From Firmicutes bacterium UBA1426 (GTDB lineage: Bacteria; Bacillota; Clostridia; Peptostreptococcales; Anaerovoracaceae), in the NCBI GenBank assembly GCA_002329675.1, contig DCUA01000212.1:8912-21438 (forward strand): 12,527 nucleotides of DNA. The letters are read 5' to 3'. The first letter of the stretch is position 1. The number at the start of each line of letters is the position of its first letter. Below the pieces are notes generated by a model, which had not been told where the DNA came from, did no database searches, and worked only from the letters and a program-made list of their open reading frames with translations. Positions 1,948 to 10,605 of the stretch are shown here, in pieces. The translations under genes and the position numbers were made by a program.

Positions 1948-1974
1948 GGACTCCTTCGGCAGATGCCTGAGTCC
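1948..1974 (-). other. Stem-loop just after the rfbD stop codon
   Basis: On the minus strand GGACTC and GAGTCC form a perfect 6-bp outer stem. Inside it GGC and GCC form a 3-bp inner stem with an ATCT loop. The structure touches the rfbD stop codon at 1974-1976. No T-run follows it, so it is not an intrinsic terminator, and transcription must continue to rfbC and the polymerase. It could protect the upstream message or tune rfbC expression. Pairing is read from sequence only. Confidence 0.4.
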
Positions 1975-3011
1975 TACAGTTTTGCTTCCTGCAGGTACCG
2001 TTTCACCGCATCCTGCCATGTCGGCAGCGGCTGGAATCCCGCTTCTGTGAGCTTCTTTTTCTCCAGCCTGCTGTTATATGGCCTTGCTGCCACGGAGAGC
2101 CCGTACTCCTCCGTCGTGACCGGGATGACCTTTGTGGAGAGTCCGTATTGCTTATAGAACTCCACGCAGAAGTCATACCAGCTGATATATCCGCCGGGCT
2201 CTGATTCAGAGTTTGTTGCGTGGTAGTAACCGTATTTCTCGGTCTCCACCATATCCACAAGGAGCCGTGCCAGGTCGAGGGTGTAGGTCGGGGTACCGAT
2301 CTGGTCGTTTACGACGCGGACGGTATCATGCGTTTTCCCGACATTGATCATGGTCTTGATGAAGTTTTTCCCGTTCAGTCCGAATACCCAGGCGATCCGG
2401 ACGATGAAATACTTCTCCAGGATGCTGCTGACTGCCTGCTCCCCCTCTAATTTGCTCTGACCATAGACATTGAGGGGTGCGTAACATTTATCATCCGGCT
2501 CCCACGGTCTTGTCCCCTGGCCGTCAAAGACATAGTCCGTGCTGATATAGACCATCTTGGCGTCGACCGCTTTAGCGGCTTTGGCAATATTCTCCGTGCC
2601 GACTGCGTTGATCTGATGGACTTTTTCCCGGTTCGCCTCATCCTCCGCAGCGTCAACCGCCGTCCATGCGGCACAGTGGATGACCACATCCGGTTTTAAT
2701 TCTTCGATGGTGCGCTTTACGGCATCGGCCTGGGTTATGTCCAGCTGGACGTAAGGAGCCGTTACGACCGCGCTCCCGTCATCCACACCGCTGTACGTTC
2801 CCTGGATATCCGATCCGACCGCTTCATGATTTCTGCCGACGAGGTTGTTGACCACGTCATGTCCAAGCTGACCGCCAACGCCTGTTACAAACACTTTCAT
2901 GGATTCACCTGCTCTGCTCCCGCTTCCGATCGCGGTATGTCCACGGCGCAGCAGTTCTTTGACCACATCGTGGCCCAGCTGGCCGTTTACTCCTGTTACA
3001 AAAACTTTCAA
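1974..3011 (-). CDS. rfbD: dTDP-4-dehydrorhamnose reductase RfbD/RmlD, with duplicated N-terminus
   Basis: This enzyme reduces dTDP-4-keto-L-rhamnose to dTDP-L-rhamnose, the last pathway step. The open frame of 345 residues begins with TTG at 3011. Its first 29 residues repeat, in diverged form, the residues beginning at Met38 (MKVFVTGV.GQLGHDVV in both). Starting at the second copy, ATG at 2900 gives 308 residues, much closer to the normal family length. That ATG has an AGGTG site 5 bases upstream, so I favour 2900 as the main start. Motifs in the long numbering are GVGGQLG (44-50, NAD(P) binding), HCAAWTAVDAAE (112-123), STDYVFDG (157-164) and YGQSK (183-187, catalytic Tyr/Lys). The long frame starts 4 bases after the acyltransferase stop. 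The enzyme core looks intact. Whether the 37 extra residues are ever made is unknown. Confidence 0.95.
   Translation of the reverse strand: MKVFVTGVNGQLGHDVVKELLRRGHTAIGSGSRAGESMKVFVTGVGGQLGHDVVNNLVGRNHEAVGSDIQGTYSGVDDGSAVVTAPYVQLDITQADAVKRTIEELKPDVVIHCAAWTAVDAAEDEANREKVHQINAVGTENIAKAAKAVDAKMVYISTDYVFDGQGTRPWEPDDKCYAPLNVYGQSKLEGEQAVSSILEKYFIVRIAWVFGLNGKNFIKTMINVGKTHDTVRVVNDQIGTPTYTLDLARLLVDMVETEKYGYYHATNSESEPGGYISWYDFCVEFYKQYGLSTKVIPVTTEEYGLSVAARPYNSRLEKKKLTEAGFQPLPTWQDAVKRYLQEAKL
2901..3011 (-). repeat. Partial, diverged duplication of the rfbD 5' end
   Basis: This 111-base segment encodes a second copy of the first ~29 RmlD residues, fused in frame ahead of the full gene through a short non-homologous linker (SGSRAGES). 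The copies share MKVFVTGV, GQLGHDVV and a GH.A.GS-type ending, but differ at many silent sites and in KELLRRGH versus NNLVGRNH. They are therefore not a recent tandem duplication. The linker DNA contains the ribosome site of the full copy. The simplest reading is recombination between two rfbD alleles, leaving the 5' stub of one in front of the other. Confidence 0.85.
2906..2910 (-). promoter_or_regulatory. Internal ribosome binding site favouring the rfbD start at 2900
   Basis: AGGTG lies 5 bases before ATG 2900, at the second copy of the RmlD N-terminus. The upstream alternative, TTG at 3011, has only a weaker AAGGG about 9 bases away. Together with family length this favours the internal ATG as the main start. 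Confidence 0.6.
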
Positions 3012-3015
3012 TCAA

Positions 3016-4056
3016 TCATACCCTTATTAATCCACGGCACTTTCTCCATGCCATGTCCACTAATAACGGGACCCCTACACCTGCTAATAAATAAAACGGC
3101 CACAACCATACAGGCTGTTGTAAAACTGGAAATGAAGATAAATAGTCCATTTCCATAGAACTGATAGATATGTATGCCCAAGTTACATACTTGAACGCAA
3201 GAAAGTGCCCCAGTATTATCGGTGTCGTATGTCTGCCAAGTATGGATAATACATTCAGCATACTTCCTGAGAGCATAGCTGCTATTGCGTACACAAAAAT
3301 CCATCCAGCAACCATACAAACAAAGTAAAACCCAATATTGGTTATTTGACCTTGAGCAACTGAAACCGATCCTAATACATTCATGATCAGTAGTATTATT
3401 AATGAAATCGGTAGGCTAATAGTTTTATGCTTTCGTATCCACGTATTAACATCATATCTCTTCCAATAGTAACCAACTCCAAATGCAACATATCCAGAAA
3501 AAAATGACTGTGTAGAAACAGGAAGTTGAATATGTTTCATAGATACTACTTGGGCACAAATACCAGCCATCACAATACTTCCTGCAAAAAAACACTCTTT
3601 GTTCTTGGTTTTATTTGCGACAAATCGAACCAACATACAGATAATTGAGACAAGGAACAGAATCCGCAAAAACCAAGTTGCTCCGCCCATTGTTGTCCCA
3701 CCCATAAAAAATACTATCTTGATAATATTCTTTAAGAGAGTTGGAATACTATACACCTGTTCAATGGGGGCACCGACGACTTCAGCGACAGCAGAATCAA
3801 TCGTGTATAACCCAAGATCAATGAATTTGTTATTCAGTATTGCGAAAAGAACATTGGATAAGGCAAATGGTATATATAGAGTTTTTAGTCTGCGTTTAAA
3901 AAAATTGAACACATTTTCTTTACTCTCTATTGTTTTATCATTCCAAAAATAACCAGATAGCATAAAGAATAATGCCATATGGAATAGGTAAACAAAATGT
4001 ACTCCATCGCTTGCAGTATGGCCATATACCATCAATATGATGCCAATGCCCTTCAT
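3016..4056 (-). CDS. Membrane acyltransferase-3 family protein (O-acetyltransferase-like); 5' end split by a G-run
   Basis: The 346-residue in-frame product is strongly hydrophobic with about ten predicted membrane spans. It begins at the family hallmark MKGIGIILMVYGHT, which contains the conserved His (residue 13) of the acyltransferase-3 (OafA/WecH/YfiQ-like) domain. Such proteins transfer acetyl or similar groups to sugars of membrane-linked glycans. ATG 4056 has no ribosome site and lacks the usual residues just before the first span. Those residues (YRDSYLDA) lie directly upstream in frame, but that frame meets a TAG with no start codon before it. A proper start, ATG 4136, lies in another frame; adding one G to the run at 4081-4087 would join both parts into 373 residues (see 4053-4136). 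The gene is AT-rich beside rfbB and rfbD, suggesting separate acquisition. The family call is secure; the sugar and acyl group are unknown. Confidence 0.88.
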   Translation of the reverse strand: MKGIGIILMVYGHTASDGVHFVYLFHMALFFMLSGYFWNDKTIESKENVFNFFKRRLKTLYIPFALSNVLFAILNNKFIDLGLYTIDSAVAEVVGAPIEQVYSIPTLLKNIIKIVFFMGGTTMGGATWFLRILFLVSIICMLVRFVANKTKNKECFFAGSIVMAGICAQVVSMKHIQLPVSTQSFFSGYVAFGVGYYWKRYDVNTWIRKHKTISLPISLIILLIMNVLGSVSVAQGQITNIGFYFVCMVAGWIFVYAIAAMLSGSMLNVLSILGRHTTPIILGHFLAFKYVTWAYISISSMEMDYLSSFPVLQQPVWLWPFYLLAGVGVPLLVDMAWRKCRGLIRV

Positions 4057-4136
4057 TGCATCAAGATAAGAATCTCTGTACCCCCCCGACTATTTAACGG
4101 AAAGGAACGTTTTTCTCCTTCTTTAGATTGATTCAT
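4053..4136 (-). CDS. Out-of-frame 5' segment of the acyltransferase (27 codons), ending ATGA on the internal start
   Basis: ATG 4136 lies 2 bases after the rfbB stop and has an AAGG site about 6 bases upstream, so it looks like the real translation start. It reads MNQSKEGEKRSFPLNSRGG and then, past the G7 run, runs out of frame to a TGA at 4055-4053. That TGA overlaps the internal ATG 4056 as ATGA, so a terminating ribosome might restart there and make an N-terminally trimmed enzyme. With one extra G, the same start would read RGGYRDSYLDAMKGIG, a typical acyltransferase-3 N-terminus. The start and frame relation are seen directly; restart is inference. It could simply be a broken gene or a sequence error. 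Confidence 0.7.
   Translation of the reverse strand: MNQSKEGEKRSFPLNSRGGTEILILMQ
4081..4087 (-). repeat. G7 homopolymer at a frame junction
   Basis: Seven consecutive C on the plus strand (G on the coding strand) are flanked as C-G7-TAC. The run sits exactly where the frame from ATG 4136 and the acyltransferase frame part ways. Eight G would make them continuous. It is one of only two G/C runs of six or more that I found in the window. Confidence 0.9.
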
Positions 4137-4138
4137 AT

Positions 4139-5158
4139 TCACCTTGTCCCGTACATGCGCTCGTAGTACTTGGTGTACTCCCCGGAGATGATCTCTTCCC
4201 ACCAGGGCTTATTGTCCAGGTACCACTGGATCGTCTTTTTGATGCCGTCCGCAAACCTGGTCTCCGGCAGCCAGCCCAGCTCGTTGTGGATCTTGGTGGG
4301 GTCGATGGCATACCGCATATCGTGACCCTTCCGGTCCGTCACGTAGGTGATCAGGCTCTCGGGCTTGTTCAGTTCATGGCAGATCAGCTTCACGATGTCG
4401 ATATTGGCCATTTCGTTATGACCGCCGACATTATAGACTTCGCCGATCCGGCCCTTCCGCACAATCAGGTCGATGGCCTTGCAGTGATCCTCCACGTACA
4501 GCCAGTCGCGGACGTTAAGGCCTTGTCCATAGACCGGAAGCGGCTTGTCGTTCAGGCAGTTAGCGATCATGAGGGGGATCAGCTTTTCAGGGAAATGATA
4601 TGGCCCATAGTTGTTGCTGCAACGGCTGATCGTCACAGGCAGGCCATATGTACGGAGGTACGCAAGGACCAGAAGATCTGCGCCAGCCTTGGAAGAGCTG
4701 TACGGAGAACTCGTATGGATTGGGGTCTCCTCTGTGAAGAATAGATCCGGGCGGTCAAGAGGCAGGTCGCCATAGACCTCGTCCGTGGAAACCTGATGGT
4801 ACCTCACATTGCCGAACGCACGGCAGGCATCCATCATAGTCGCTGTTCCGATAATATTGGTCTGCAGGAAGATGCCGGGGTTCTCTATGCTACGGTCCAC
4901 GTGGCTCTCCGCCGCGAAATTGATGACCACATCGGGCTTTTCCTCTTCAAAGAGGGCGAAGACGCCTTCCCGGTCGCAGATGTCCAACTTACAGAAGCGG
5001 AAGTTGGGGTTGTCCATCACGGGAGCGAGAGTGCTCAGGTTCCCGGCGTAGGTGAGCTTGTCGATACAGACCACACGGTCGTCTGGGTGCTCTTTCAGAT
5101 GATAATGGATGAAGTTTCCGCCGATGAAGCCGGCGCCGCCAGTAACAAATATCGTCAT
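4139..5158 (-). CDS. rfbB: dTDP-glucose 4,6-dehydratase RfbB/RmlB
   Basis: The 339-residue extended-SDR enzyme converts dTDP-glucose to dTDP-4-keto-6-deoxyglucose with bound NAD, the second step of dTDP-L-rhamnose synthesis. Motifs in order are GGAGFIG (7-13), DKLTYAGN (33-40), AAESHVDRSI (82-91), STDEVYGDL (124-132) with the dehydration residues Asp126 and Glu127, YSSSK (153-157) with catalytic Tyr/Lys, and NNYGPYHFPEKLIP (182-195). Length and motifs are full and normal. An AGGAAAGGA ribosome site precedes ATG 5158, which lies 18 bases after rfbA. The stop is 2 bases from the acyltransferase ATG at 4136, so the two are probably co-translated. Confidence 0.98.
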   Translation of the reverse strand: MTIFVTGGAGFIGGNFIHYHLKEHPDDRVVCIDKLTYAGNLSTLAPVMDNPNFRFCKLDICDREGVFALFEEEKPDVVINFAAESHVDRSIENPGIFLQTNIIGTATMMDACRAFGNVRYHQVSTDEVYGDLPLDRPDLFFTEETPIHTSSPYSSSKAGADLLVLAYLRTYGLPVTISRCSNNYGPYHFPEKLIPLMIANCLNDKPLPVYGQGLNVRDWLYVEDHCKAIDLIVRKGRIGEVYNVGGHNEMANIDIVKLICHELNKPESLITYVTDRKGHDMRYAIDPTKIHNELGWLPETRFADGIKKTIQWYLDNKPWWEEIISGEYTKYYERMYGTR

Positions 5159-8099: not shown

Positions 8100-9104
8100 T
8101 CAGAACAATCCTTGCTGATCGCAATCCTTAAACCAATCAGCAAAGCTTTCTTCAAGAGTGTAGTGGAACTTGTAGTCCGTTCCCGCCAGCTTCTTCCCGC
8201 TGATGTTCGTGCTGACCATCAGCTTCTTCACACGAGCGGGATGAATGCCCTTCTTCGCGCCGATAGGAGCTAAAACAGTTGCTCCAGCCATTAACATCCA
8301 CTCTGGCACCATCGGCACCTTACGACCTTTAAGGTCTGTGGATGCCTTCATTGCTTCCACGATCTGTTCAATCGTATATGCAGGCTCAAAGGTGCAGTTG
8401 ATGATGTCATAACCGGGGAAGGAGTTATCAATCATGCGGTACTTCATGAACTGAACCAGTTCCTTGACATACACACAGGCTTTAATCGTGTCCTTCCGCC
8501 CAGCGTAGATGTAGTAGTGACCCTTGATGCCCTTGTACAGCCGGGTCATATTACCGTGCTCACCTTTGCCGTATACGATGCCTGGACGGACGATGGTGAG
8601 CTCTCTATGCTTTTCCTTCTCGCACCAACCGATATGAATCTTCTCAGCGACGAGTTTTGATATACCGTAGGGCGTGTTTGGGGTAGGAAGAGTATCTTCG
8701 CTTTTCAGTTCCTCTGATGCTCCATACGGTGCGATAGAAGATGTAAAGAGGATCTTCTTGATGCCGTGCTTCTCTGCGAATGCAACCACGTTTTCCGCGC
8801 CACGGATGTTGGTCTCAAAGTATTCTTTATCTTCATGACCGGGAGTACGATGTACTGCGGCAAGATTGAAGATGATATCAGAGGATGTCGGAGTGAAGGA
8901 GAAATCTACTTCTTTCCTTACATCCAGTCTTATGTATTCAACGCCGTCGTTTTTCTCAACGACTCCCGGAACTACACCCTCTTCGCCGGGCATCACAATA
9001 TCGAGATCGTAGATATTGTCGCCGGGCTGTTTAAGAGAAAGCAGCGTGTGAATCAGATGAGTTCCAATAAAACCAGAGCCACCAAAGATAATGTAATTCA
9101 TCAT
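8100..9104 (-). CDS. NAD-dependent epimerase/dehydratase (extended SDR)
   Basis: The 334-residue protein has the SDR layout: GGSGFIG (8-14) for NAD binding, LDV (60-62), NLAAVHR (80-86), TSSIAPYG (121-128), and YGISK (146-150) with catalytic Tyr146 and Lys150. RPGIVYGKGEHGN follows in the substrate half. It presumably epimerises, dehydrates or reduces a nucleotide sugar for one of the transferases here. RmlB is accounted for elsewhere, and the STDEVYG motif is missing, so this is not a second 4,6-dehydratase. It could equally be a 4-epimerase or a 4-ketoreductase. The start has two adjacent ATG codons (9104 and 9101) behind a GGAGG site. The -1-frame tail of the preceding transferase would end in TGA at 9103-9101, an ATGA overlap. 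Confidence 0.88.
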   Translation of the reverse strand: MMNYIIFGGSGFIGTHLIHTLLSLKQPGDNIYDLDIVMPGEEGVVPGVVEKNDGVEYIRLDVRKEVDFSFTPTSSDIIFNLAAVHRTPGHEDKEYFETNIRGAENVVAFAEKHGIKKILFTSSIAPYGASEELKSEDTLPTPNTPYGISKLVAEKIHIGWCEKEKHRELTIVRPGIVYGKGEHGNMTRLYKGIKGHYYIYAGRKDTIKACVYVKELVQFMKYRMIDNSFPGYDIINCTFEPAYTIEQIVEAMKASTDLKGRKVPMVPEWMLMAGATVLAPIGAKKGIHPARVKKLMVSTNISGKKLAGTDYKFHYTLEESFADWFKDCDQQGLF

Positions 9105-9278
9105 GCCGCCTCCTTCATTTGGAGGTCAGCATCTTCGCTGGTCTCGGTCTTTACCTCTATCTTCTCTTCGTCACCTTTCTCTCCACCCGTAATATGGGCG
9201 GCTGTAAGAGAAGTGATGGCATCACTCGTTCTAAAGGCTTCGGGGATATCAAATAAGCTACTTAGCCGTACCCCCCCC
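9101..9278 (-). CDS. Out-of-frame C-terminal extension of the WbuB-like glycosyltransferase
   Basis: Past the G8 run at 9271-9278 the annotated transferase frame stops within three codons (Tyr-Gly-stop at 9262). The -1 frame remains open for about 55 codons. It begins RLSSLFDIPEAFRTSDAI, continues through an acidic Glu/Lys/Thr-rich stretch, and ends QMKEAA with TGA at 9103-9101. The stop overlaps the next gene's ATG as ATGA, the same junction used elsewhere in this operon. The composition looks like ordinary protein and the frame fills an otherwise empty 157-base gap. Nine G instead of eight would give a continuous 501-residue protein. I do not recognise a domain in the tail. Confidence 0.72.
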
Positions 9279-10605
9279 GCTTGATTTGGGCTGTCATTTC
9301 ATTTCCTCCAGTCATATTCTCAACAGCCGTATCAGGGCTGATGATCGCTTCTTTGTATTTTCGGATGGACACATCTTTTGTGAGGTGTTCTACTAAATAT
9401 GCCCTGCTTCTTGCGCCCATCTCTTCAAGTTCAGGACTTCCCGCATGTTCATTGAACCAAGCAATATTCTTTTCGACTTGCTCATAGTCTCCAGGTTCAC
9501 ACACCAGACCGCCCTGTGTCTCGTCAATCAGGCAACAAACTTCCGACCCGCTTTCAAGAACACCGAGGATCGGTTTTCCTGCCGCTGCAAGGCCATAGTA
9601 CTTACTGGGACAGCTGACACCCTTGATTCCCTTAGCATTCACACACCAGTGGACGTCTCCGGCGTTTAATGAGTAGATCAGGTCTGCCTTGTCCTGGTAG
9701 GGGATGAAGGCGGTATTATTCATACCGTGCTCCTTCACATACATCACCAGCTTATCCAGGACACTCCCTGCGCCGACGAAAGCAAAGACCACATCCCGTC
9801 CATCAGGCGTTTTCGCACCCTTAAACTGCTCAATGACCTTGATCAGTCCTTCAAGGTCGTAGTAGAGACCAATGTTGCCGCTGTACATCACCACAAACTT
9901 ATCAACCAGTCCGTACTTCGCCCGGAACTCAATGACCCGTGGATGATCAGCAGGAAGAGGATAAATCTCCTTCTCATCGATCCAGTTATTGATCATCGCA
10001 ACCTTAGGAGGATTCTTCTTGAAGCGGCTTCTCACGCTATCCACCAGGTCGCGGCCAACCGTGATCACCAGATCAGATTTCCGGCAACTGTACTTGTCTA
10101 TAGCCATCATTACCTTGAGCGCCAGCTTATTTCCGAAGTATCCCACCGCCATAATCTGCTCAGGGTTTAAGTCCTGAATGTTGTAGAAAAGCGCAGGCCG
10201 TTTCCCGTCAGCAGTTCTCAGTTTTTTCTTCCCATACACACCTAAAAGACCGCCCATGAGTGGGGGCTGTGAGATGGTAAATACATAATCGAAAGGTTCC
10301 TTTAGCTCTCTCGTAGCCTTACGAGCGTTAAAGAAATATGCTACAATGTTCTTTATCCTGCTCTTCTTACTACTCTTTGAAAACTCGGGAACTGGCACAC
10401 GAAGAACATGCACCCCGTTTATATCCTCCCGATAAATTCTCTTTTCTTGATACTCAGTGGCAATCGTCCCGGTATAAGAAGGAACAACGCAGAGCACCGT
10501 TATATCGAATTCATCCCGCATCCCTTCAGCAAGCTCACGGAGTATTTGCCCTGTGGACGCCACATCTGGGATGTAGTAATGGGCGTATATTAGTAGTTTC
10601 TTCAT
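9262..10605 (-). CDS. GT4 glycosyltransferase, WbuB-like; C-terminus cut by a G8 frame break
   Basis: The 447-residue GT-B transferase resembles WbuB-type enzymes of O-antigen and capsule loci. Visible blocks are HYYIPDVASTGQI (9-21), SQPPLMGG (112-119), YNIQDLNPEQIMAVG (141-155), MINNWIDEKE (204-213), YSGNIGLYYDLEGLI (241-255), FVGAGS (276-281) and KGVSCPSKYYGLAAAGKP (328-345). Gly338 stands where many GT4 enzymes have Glu. The catalytic fold appears complete by about residue 422, so the frame break affects only a tail. ATG 10605 overlaps the acetyltransferase stop as ATGA and has an AAGG-rich site upstream. WbuB-like enzymes often transfer an N-acetylated 6-deoxy sugar; here donor and acceptor are unknown. 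The two nearby SDR enzymes may supply its donor. Confidence 0.88.
   Translation of the reverse strand: MKKLLIYAHYYIPDVASTGQILRELAEGMRDEFDITVLCVVPSYTGTIATEYQEKRIYREDINGVHVLRVPVPEFSKSSKKSRIKNIVAYFFNARKATRELKEPFDYVFTISQPPLMGGLLGVYGKKKLRTADGKRPALFYNIQDLNPEQIMAVGYFGNKLALKVMMAIDKYSCRKSDLVITVGRDLVDSVRSRFKKNPPKVAMINNWIDEKEIYPLPADHPRVIEFRAKYGLVDKFVVMYSGNIGLYYDLEGLIKVIEQFKGAKTPDGRDVVFAFVGAGSVLDKLVMYVKEHGMNNTAFIPYQDKADLIYSLNAGDVHWCVNAKGIKGVSCPSKYYGLAAAGKPILGVLESGSEVCCLIDETQGGLVCEPGDYEQVEKNIAWFNEHAGSPELEEMGARSRAYLVEHLTKDVSIRKYKEAIISPDTAVENMTGGNEMTAQIKRGGYG
9271..9278 (-). repeat. G8 homopolymer at a frame junction
   Basis: Eight consecutive C on the plus strand (G on the coding strand) lie in the context C-G8-TAC near the 3' end of the WbuB-like transferase frame. 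Nine G, or a -1 shift, would fuse the 9262-10605 frame with the tail ending at 9101. It is the longest G/C run found in the window. Confidence 0.9.

What the first reader, a model, noticed from the sequence alone, without database searches (positions are those of the whole stretch)
4053..4136. Acyltransferase N-terminus split by a G7 run: candidate phase-variable switch
The well-placed start (ATG 4136, good ribosome site, 2 bases after rfbB) and the acyltransferase body are in different frames, and the frames part exactly at a G7 run. One extra G gives a continuous 373-residue protein with the expected YRDSYLDAMKGIG N-terminus. Surface-glycan O-acetyltransferases are well-known targets of homopolymer phase variation in other bacteria. 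In the present state the short frame ends in ATGA on an internal Met codon, so the 'off' phase might still make a trimmed enzyme by restart. This would be an on/modified switch rather than on/off.
Basis: partly seen in the sequence, partly recalled or inferred. Interest (0 to 1): 0.8.

Follow-up and report, generated by a model that had tools for sequence, protein, structure and literature searches.

The report
Poly-G switch in a sugar-coat gene
A run of seven Gs separates the start of a surface-sugar-decorating enzyme gene from its body; similar G runs crowd into the sugar-coat genes of this uncultured bacterium and leave several out of frame, so it is most likely one of a set of random on/off switches that vary the cell surface.

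Summary
In detail: a G7 on the minus strand (C7 at 4081-4087) separates the well-placed start (ATG 4136) from the Acyl_transf_3 body (3016-4056). Of 51 homologues, 50 carry a leader before the KGIG motif, so ATG 4056 is an unlikely natural start.

New evidence lifts it above a lone frameshift. Of the genome's 13 G runs of eight or more, 9 lie on four surface-glycan contigs holding 3.4% of its bases (A/T runs: 7 of 96). A second tract in the window (9271-9278) cuts a glycosyltransferase from a 3' tail that three relatives read in one frame. A pyruvyl transferase and an FrhB-type Fe-S protein are split at G/C tracts on another glycan contig.

Best explanation: slipped-strand poly-G phase variation, the assembly showing the acyltransferase out of phase. 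Length variation between cells could not be tested, G7 is short, and the genome is a fragmented draft. The 'on/modified' restart idea is weakly supported. The mechanism is known from Campylobacter and Helicobacter; no report of it in Lachnospiraceae or other gut Clostridia appeared in the listings I saw (taxon inferred).

The parts
4081..4087 (-). G7 tract at the frame change, 49 bases into the leader frame
4053..4136 (-). Leader frame: ATG 4136, 27 codons, TGA overlapping ATG 4056; AAGGTG at 4145-4140
4057..4089 (-). 11 open codons of the body frame above ATG 4056 (SGGYRDSYLDA) without ATG/GTG/TTG, below a TAG at 4090-4092
3016..4056 (-). Acyl_transf_3 body, 346 aa from ATG 4056
   Evidence: PF01757, 97.2 bits, profile 7-324 of 326
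4139..5158 (-). rmlB/rfbB-type dTDP-glucose dehydratase gene, directly upstream
   Evidence: GDP_Man_Dehyd, Epimerase; the rmlB name is by resemblance
9271..9278 (-). Second tract, G8, 9 bases before the stop of a glycosyltransferase ORF
9262..10605 (-). Glycosyltransferase ORF, 447 aa, ending KRGGYG*
9101..9270 (-). Conserved 3' tail (..LSSLFDIPEAF..DADLQMKEAA*) in another frame than the glycosyltransferase ORF; its stop overlaps the next gene's ATG
8100..9104 (-). Next gene, epimerase/dehydratase-like by sequence (not run against Pfam)

Best explanation
The G7 is a phase-variation tract. During replication the run gains or loses a G by slipped-strand mispairing. In one phase class translation from ATG 4136 runs into the acyltransferase and full-length enzyme is made; in the state shown in the assembly it ends 27 codons after its start, about nine codons past the run. 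The same process acts on at least three other tracts in the glycan loci of this genome, so cells of one population would carry different combinations of glycan-modifying enzymes. Shown: the tract, the two frames, the conserved leader region beyond the only body start, the concentration of tracts in glycan contigs, three further genes or tails out of frame at such tracts, and in-frame relatives (as proteins) for one of them. Inferred: slippage, reversibility, and the effect on the glycan.
For: G7 exactly in the short zone open in both frames. 50 of 51 homologues have 5-33 residues before KGIG (48 of 49 scored by script, P0015 and P0023 by eye). Two homologues, P0018 (SGGGYSRN) and P0007 (AGGGTARN), have three Gly in a row near the corresponding leader position and P0051 has two; their DNA was not seen. 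Second window tract: P0175, P0176 and P0178 read enzyme and tail in one frame, the window does not. C99:4676: PS_pyruv_trans cut into profile 1-166 and 241-279 on the two sides of a G8. C99:18271: the two pieces of an FrhB-type protein abut at residue 21 of an intact paralogue on the same contig. 9 of 13 G runs of 8 or more, and 4 of 4 of 9 or more, lie on four contigs with 3.4% of the bases and 13 of 17 PF00534 matches; A/T runs 7 of 96 (Fisher P 1.5e-6).
Against: No reads, no second strain and no orthologue of this acyltransferase: none in 147 relatives at E 1e-20, one catalogue member. G7 is at the low end. The ten acyltransferase loci examined with DNA (L002-L011, of 12 fetched) hold no G/C run of 7 or more, so the tract is not a family trait. 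I came to the four contigs through their tracts, although the PF00534 count is independent. The same-genus genome G001 has 7 runs of 8 or more, none in a glycan locus that I could recognise. A/T runs are also slightly over-represented there (binomial P 0.047). One long gap of the gene string (102 bases, rmlD to rmlC) has no tract.
Confidence: 0.75

Rival explanations
1. Consensus or sequencing error at a homopolymer in a draft assembly; the real gene is intact and fixed.
For: 236-contig, 86%-complete assembly; homopolymers are where such errors fall (general knowledge).
Against: Errors do not create long G runs preferentially in glycan genes, and relatives show the frame difference at the second tract in independent data.
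Confidence: 0.1
2. A fixed frameshift: the acyltransferase is a young pseudogene in a variable locus.
For: Locus not found in 147 relatives, two of them of the same genus; homopolymers are mutation-prone.
Against: The 346-codon body and the leader are otherwise intact; several genes of the same kind are affected at the same kind of site.
Confidence: 0.08
3. ATG 4056 is a working start, by reinitiation at the ATGA or in its own right; the tract trims or tunes the enzyme.
For: The leader's TGA overlaps ATG 4056; homologue P0013 is catalogued from the same Met.
Against: 50 of 51 homologues carry residues before KGIG; no Shine-Dalgarno-like stretch before ATG 4056; the overlap may be incidental.
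Confidence: 0.04
4. Programmed frameshifting or transcript slippage at the G7 makes the full-length enzyme without any change in the DNA.
For: The leader reads CGG GGG GGT at the run, where re-pairing one base back is conceivable.
Against: No conserved length across the tracts: G7 to G10, some in frame and some not. No stimulatory element was looked for.
Confidence: 0.03

Closest known systems
[quoted passage not shown] PMC4965091, passages incl. parts of the abstract)
   Same: Short G runs inside ORFs of surface-structure enzymes; one tract at a 3' end (cj0045) where another length extends the ORF to overlap the next gene's start.
   Different: Different phylum (taxon here inferred); switching measured there (0.004 for a G8, 0.02 for a G11), not here; this genome has 13 runs of 8 or more, up to G10.
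C-terminal phase variation in Helicobacter canadensis (PMC2823697, abstract and section 6)
   Same: G runs near the 3' end whose frames give different tails, one of which could merge two neighbouring coding sequences.
   Different: Tracts there are G10 or longer and vary in the reads; here G8, variation not testable. Here the other frame ends on an ATGA overlap at three gene pairs.
Homopolymer tracts as a general regulatory device in prokaryotes (PMC2831843, passages and start of abstract only)
   Same: General idea of tracts within coding genes; Clostridia were among the groups sampled.
   Different: Nothing on Lachnospiraceae or poly-G in the passages searched.
Invertible-promoter and recombinase switches in gut anaerobes (Bacteroides, Clostridioides difficile; passages of PMC11868660 and PMC12355684; CwpV from a search listing)
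   Same: Random switching of surface structures in gut anaerobes.
   Different: Recombinase-driven inversion, not homopolymer slippage.

Membership tests
Homopolymer (slipped-strand) translational phase variation | Homopolymer inside or near the 5' end of an ORF, splitting two open frames | tested here: met
Homopolymer (slipped-strand) translational phase variation | Tract long enough to slip often | tested here: inconclusive
   G7 here; other tracts G8-G10. C. jejuni counts seven or more; rate here unknown.
Homopolymer (slipped-strand) translational phase variation | Tracts concentrated in surface-structure genes | tested here: met
   9 of 13 on four glycan contigs; A/T control 7 of 96
Homopolymer (slipped-strand) translational phase variation | Reversible length change in a clonal population | not testable with these tools
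   No reads; one assembly of this species
C-terminal (3'-tract) phase variation | Tract near the 3' end whose frames give different tails, with relatives in another phase | tested here: met
   Window 9271-9278 against P0175, P0176, P0178 at protein level; similar layout at C75:4826 and C163:13197 without relatives checked
Acyltransferase family 3 (PF01757) | Profile match over the cut-off | tested here: met
   97.2 bits, cut-off 31
Acyltransferase family 3 (PF01757) | N-terminal motif before the first helix, present in the product | tested here: not met
   Motif encoded in the body frame but above its only start; the product of ATG 4056 begins at profile position 7
Acyltransferase family 3 (PF01757) | Transfers an acyl group to a surface glycan | not testable with these tools
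   Inferred from neighbours only

The most novel reading that the evidence does not exclude
An uncultured (probably gut Clostridia) lineage runs a poly-G phase-variable set over its surface-glycan loci like that of Campylobacter, with a repeated extra design: at three gene pairs a tract near the 3' end decides whether the first ORF runs on to an ATGA overlap with the second, so one run would set both the tail of enzyme A and the translational coupling of enzyme B. The wider family uses G runs as promoter spacers too (26 sites in 13 of 349 genomes, reversed control 0). The shared G8-TAC flank in this genome would mark a common origin or a common factor.
Probability: 0.35. Interest if true: 0.8.

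Novelty: new member of a known kind. Interest (0 to 1): 0.6.

Why it matters
If true, homopolymer switching of surface sugars, known chiefly (recalled) from mucosal Gram-negative bacteria, also operates in anaerobes of the Clostridia, where the passages I read speak of inversion. It offers a simple test, read-level run lengths in existing metagenomes, of how these bacteria vary the surface that phages and host antibodies meet, and it warns that catalogues hold such enzymes in truncated form: the protein catalogue holds this one as the 346-aa body only.

Tried and rejected
Strain comparison of the acyltransferase: no orthologue in 147 relatives at E 1e-20, one catalogue member. DNA of the glycosyltransferase relatives: at E 1e-190 no genome but the own among 349 of the family, so the tail comparison stays at protein level. 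Acyltransferase loci with DNA: ten of the twelve fetched (L002-L011) examined, no G/C run of 7 or more. PDB by sequence: no match up to E 1. No structure was predicted. Misbinning of the four contigs: tetranucleotide profiles correlate 0.72-0.92 with five other samples of the bin and 0.78-0.85 with the sister genome G001, against 0.46-0.80 with samples of five other genera; this argues against a foreign origin but does not exclude it, and the ranges overlap. RmlD at E 1e-60 and the acyltransferase at E 1e-20 were not found in the two same-genus genomes, so the locus varies between species. A family-wide G7-TAC motif: rejected. Over 196 genomes the pattern stands out in the own genome (8 against 0 for the reversed pattern) and in G029 (6 against 1), but over the other family rows matches and reversed control are about equally frequent by hand count. 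Sister genome G001: the genes at its G8 runs look like housekeeping genes by sequence (recalled, not run against Pfam), no glycan cluster seen.

Literature: eight searches listed no paper whose title or abstract start reports homopolymer phase variation in Lachnospiraceae or other gut Clostridia; lists were capped at 20 rows, most subscription papers are not held, and PMC6437147, which holds all three terms, was not opened. Seen: PMC2823697 abstract and section 6; passages of PMC4965091, PMC11868660, PMC12355684, PMC3711429 and PMC2831843; all others as listings only.

Full report
What is there. The window is G000:C75:8912-21438, in a 2.23 Mb genome of 236 contigs, 86% complete. On the minus strand it reads as a surface-polysaccharide gene string: epimerase, hexapeptide transferase, glycosyltransferases and dTDP-rhamnose-type genes, with the Acyl_transf_3 gene between rmlB and rmlD. 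The reported G7 is at 4081-4087. The leader from ATG 4136 and the body from ATG 4056 are in different frames, and the G7 is the only run of three or more bases in the 37 bases where both are open.

Why the upstream start probably belongs to the gene. Of 51 catalogued homologues other than the window's own, 50 carry residues before the KGIG motif (5-33 in 48 of the 49 that the script could score; P0015 and P0023 by eye); only P0013 starts at the motif as ours does. An RD..LD stretch like theirs lies in the body frame just below the run, but that frame holds no ATG, GTG or TTG before a TAG. ATG 4136 has AAGGTG before it and lies 2 bases from the rmlB stop. If it is the start, the 82-base gap closes; the gaps of the string are otherwise -4 to 38 except 157 (second tract) and 102 (rmlD to rmlC, no tract).

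A second tract in the same window. The G8 at 9271-9278 ends a glycosyltransferase ORF at ..KRGGYG*. Directly below, in another frame, lies a tail that ends DADLQMKEAA*. Three relatives, P0175 (507 aa), P0176 (510 aa) and P0178 (503 aa), read enzyme and tail as one frame; P0177 (425 aa) has no such tail. The window piece matches the three tails at 54-62% identity, E 2e-19 to 3e-14 in a set of the 120 listed proteins, the next match being E 4.7. The tail's stop overlaps the next gene's ATG; a possible inner start (ATG 9297 behind GGAGG) means that the tail could also be a small ORF of its own.

The rest of the genome. There are 28 G7 runs and 13 of 8 or more. Nine of the 13, and all four of 9 or more, lie on C75, C80, C99 and C163, 76,428 bases or 3.4% of the genome; binomial P 4e-11, with the caution that I came to these contigs through their tracts. 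They hold 13 of 17 PF00534 matches. A/T runs of 8 or more: 7 of 96 there, a slight excess (P 0.047). With the window's G7, five of ten tracts leave a gene or tail out of frame: the acyltransferase; the glycosyltransferase tail; a polysaccharide pyruvyl transferase cut in two at C99:4676; an FrhB-type Fe-S protein at C99:18271, whose pieces abut when aligned to an intact paralogue on the same contig; and, on weaker grounds and without relatives, the tail of a glycerophosphotransferase-type protein at C75:4826. Five are in frame: C80:12633 and C80:15678 (glycosyltransferases; the second at a contig end), C99:6982 and C163:6590 (hexapeptide transferases), and C163:13197 (TupA-type, with a long tail).

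Shared design at 3' ends. At window 9271, C75:4826 and C163:13197 one frame runs on to end in (K/E)E(V)AA* at an ATGA overlap with the next gene, while another stops soon after the run. Those residues are spelled by the next gene's ribosome site. C. jejuni cj0045 has a comparable layout (PMC4965091, passages), and C-terminal switching is described in H. canadensis (PMC2823697), so the layout has precedents. That it couples translation is inference.

How it most likely works. Slipped-strand gain or loss of a G puts ATG 4136 in or out of frame with the body; the assembly shows it out. In C. jejuni the reported switching frequency is 0.004 for a G8 tract; a G7 would be expected to be slower, and no rate is known for this organism. 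Consensus error, fixed pseudogene, use of ATG 4056 and recoding are weighed in their own sections. Error and decay do not explain why long G runs concentrate in glycan loci.

Limits. No reads, no second strain. The enzyme's substrate is unknown.

Beyond the genome. In 349 genomes of the family a -35, G-run, -10 pattern has 26 sites in 13 genomes and none for the reversed pattern. In G233 (five) and G261 (two) it stands before tandem genes for exported proteins; the two run against Pfam both carry CWB2 domains. The own genome has no such site. This suggests wider use of poly-G switching in the family, though in other genes.

Noticed in passing
L129 (G233:C46:27000-45000) at 3282, 5907, 9009, 11893, 14322; L131 (G261:C34:1-8000) at 1662, 4180: Tandem exported-protein genes each behind TTGACA, 10 bases, G8 or G9, TATACT: G runs sit in the promoter spacer (18 or 19 bases), a layout like transcriptional phase variation. 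Two of the proteins were run against Pfam and both carry CWB2.
   Followed up: partly
26 places in 13 of 349 family genomes (one search list): TTGACA - 8 to 12 bases - G7 or more - TATA promoter-like sites, reversed control 0 in every row; e.g. three within 11.3 kb in G200:C1 (263465-274714).
   Followed up: partly
window 4081-4087 and 9271-9278; G000 C75:4826, C80:15678, C99:4676, C163:6590, C163:13197, C198:15570: The run is followed by TAC at 7 of 13 G runs of 8 or more but only 1 of 28 G7 runs (the window's own; Fisher P 5e-4), in unrelated genes, often with ATC before it. Unexplained.
   Followed up: partly
L130 (G009:C18:4000-16000) at 2809, 5424, 9442: Glycan-type gene string of another genus with G10, G11 and G9 runs; G11 at the 5' end of an FkbM methyltransferase-type ORF and G9 in a Glyco_transf_56-type ORF.
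   Followed up: partly
window 1974-3011: RmlD with its N-terminal stretch of about 37 residues repeated in tandem; full-length matches of the same 345-aa length up to 95% identity exist (P0054, 24 members), so it looks inherited and ordinary.
   Followed up: partly
L094 (G000:C100:1-7389) 4032-4059: C7 and G7 14 bases apart in inverted orientation between genes; terminator-like.
   Followed up: no
L136 (G034:C183:5000-9211) from about 2709: Repeats that read as PHAWG / PTCVGVT / SHPHMRGGY with G7 and G9 runs inside; looks like a CRISPR-type array read as protein (recalled, not tested).
   Followed up: no
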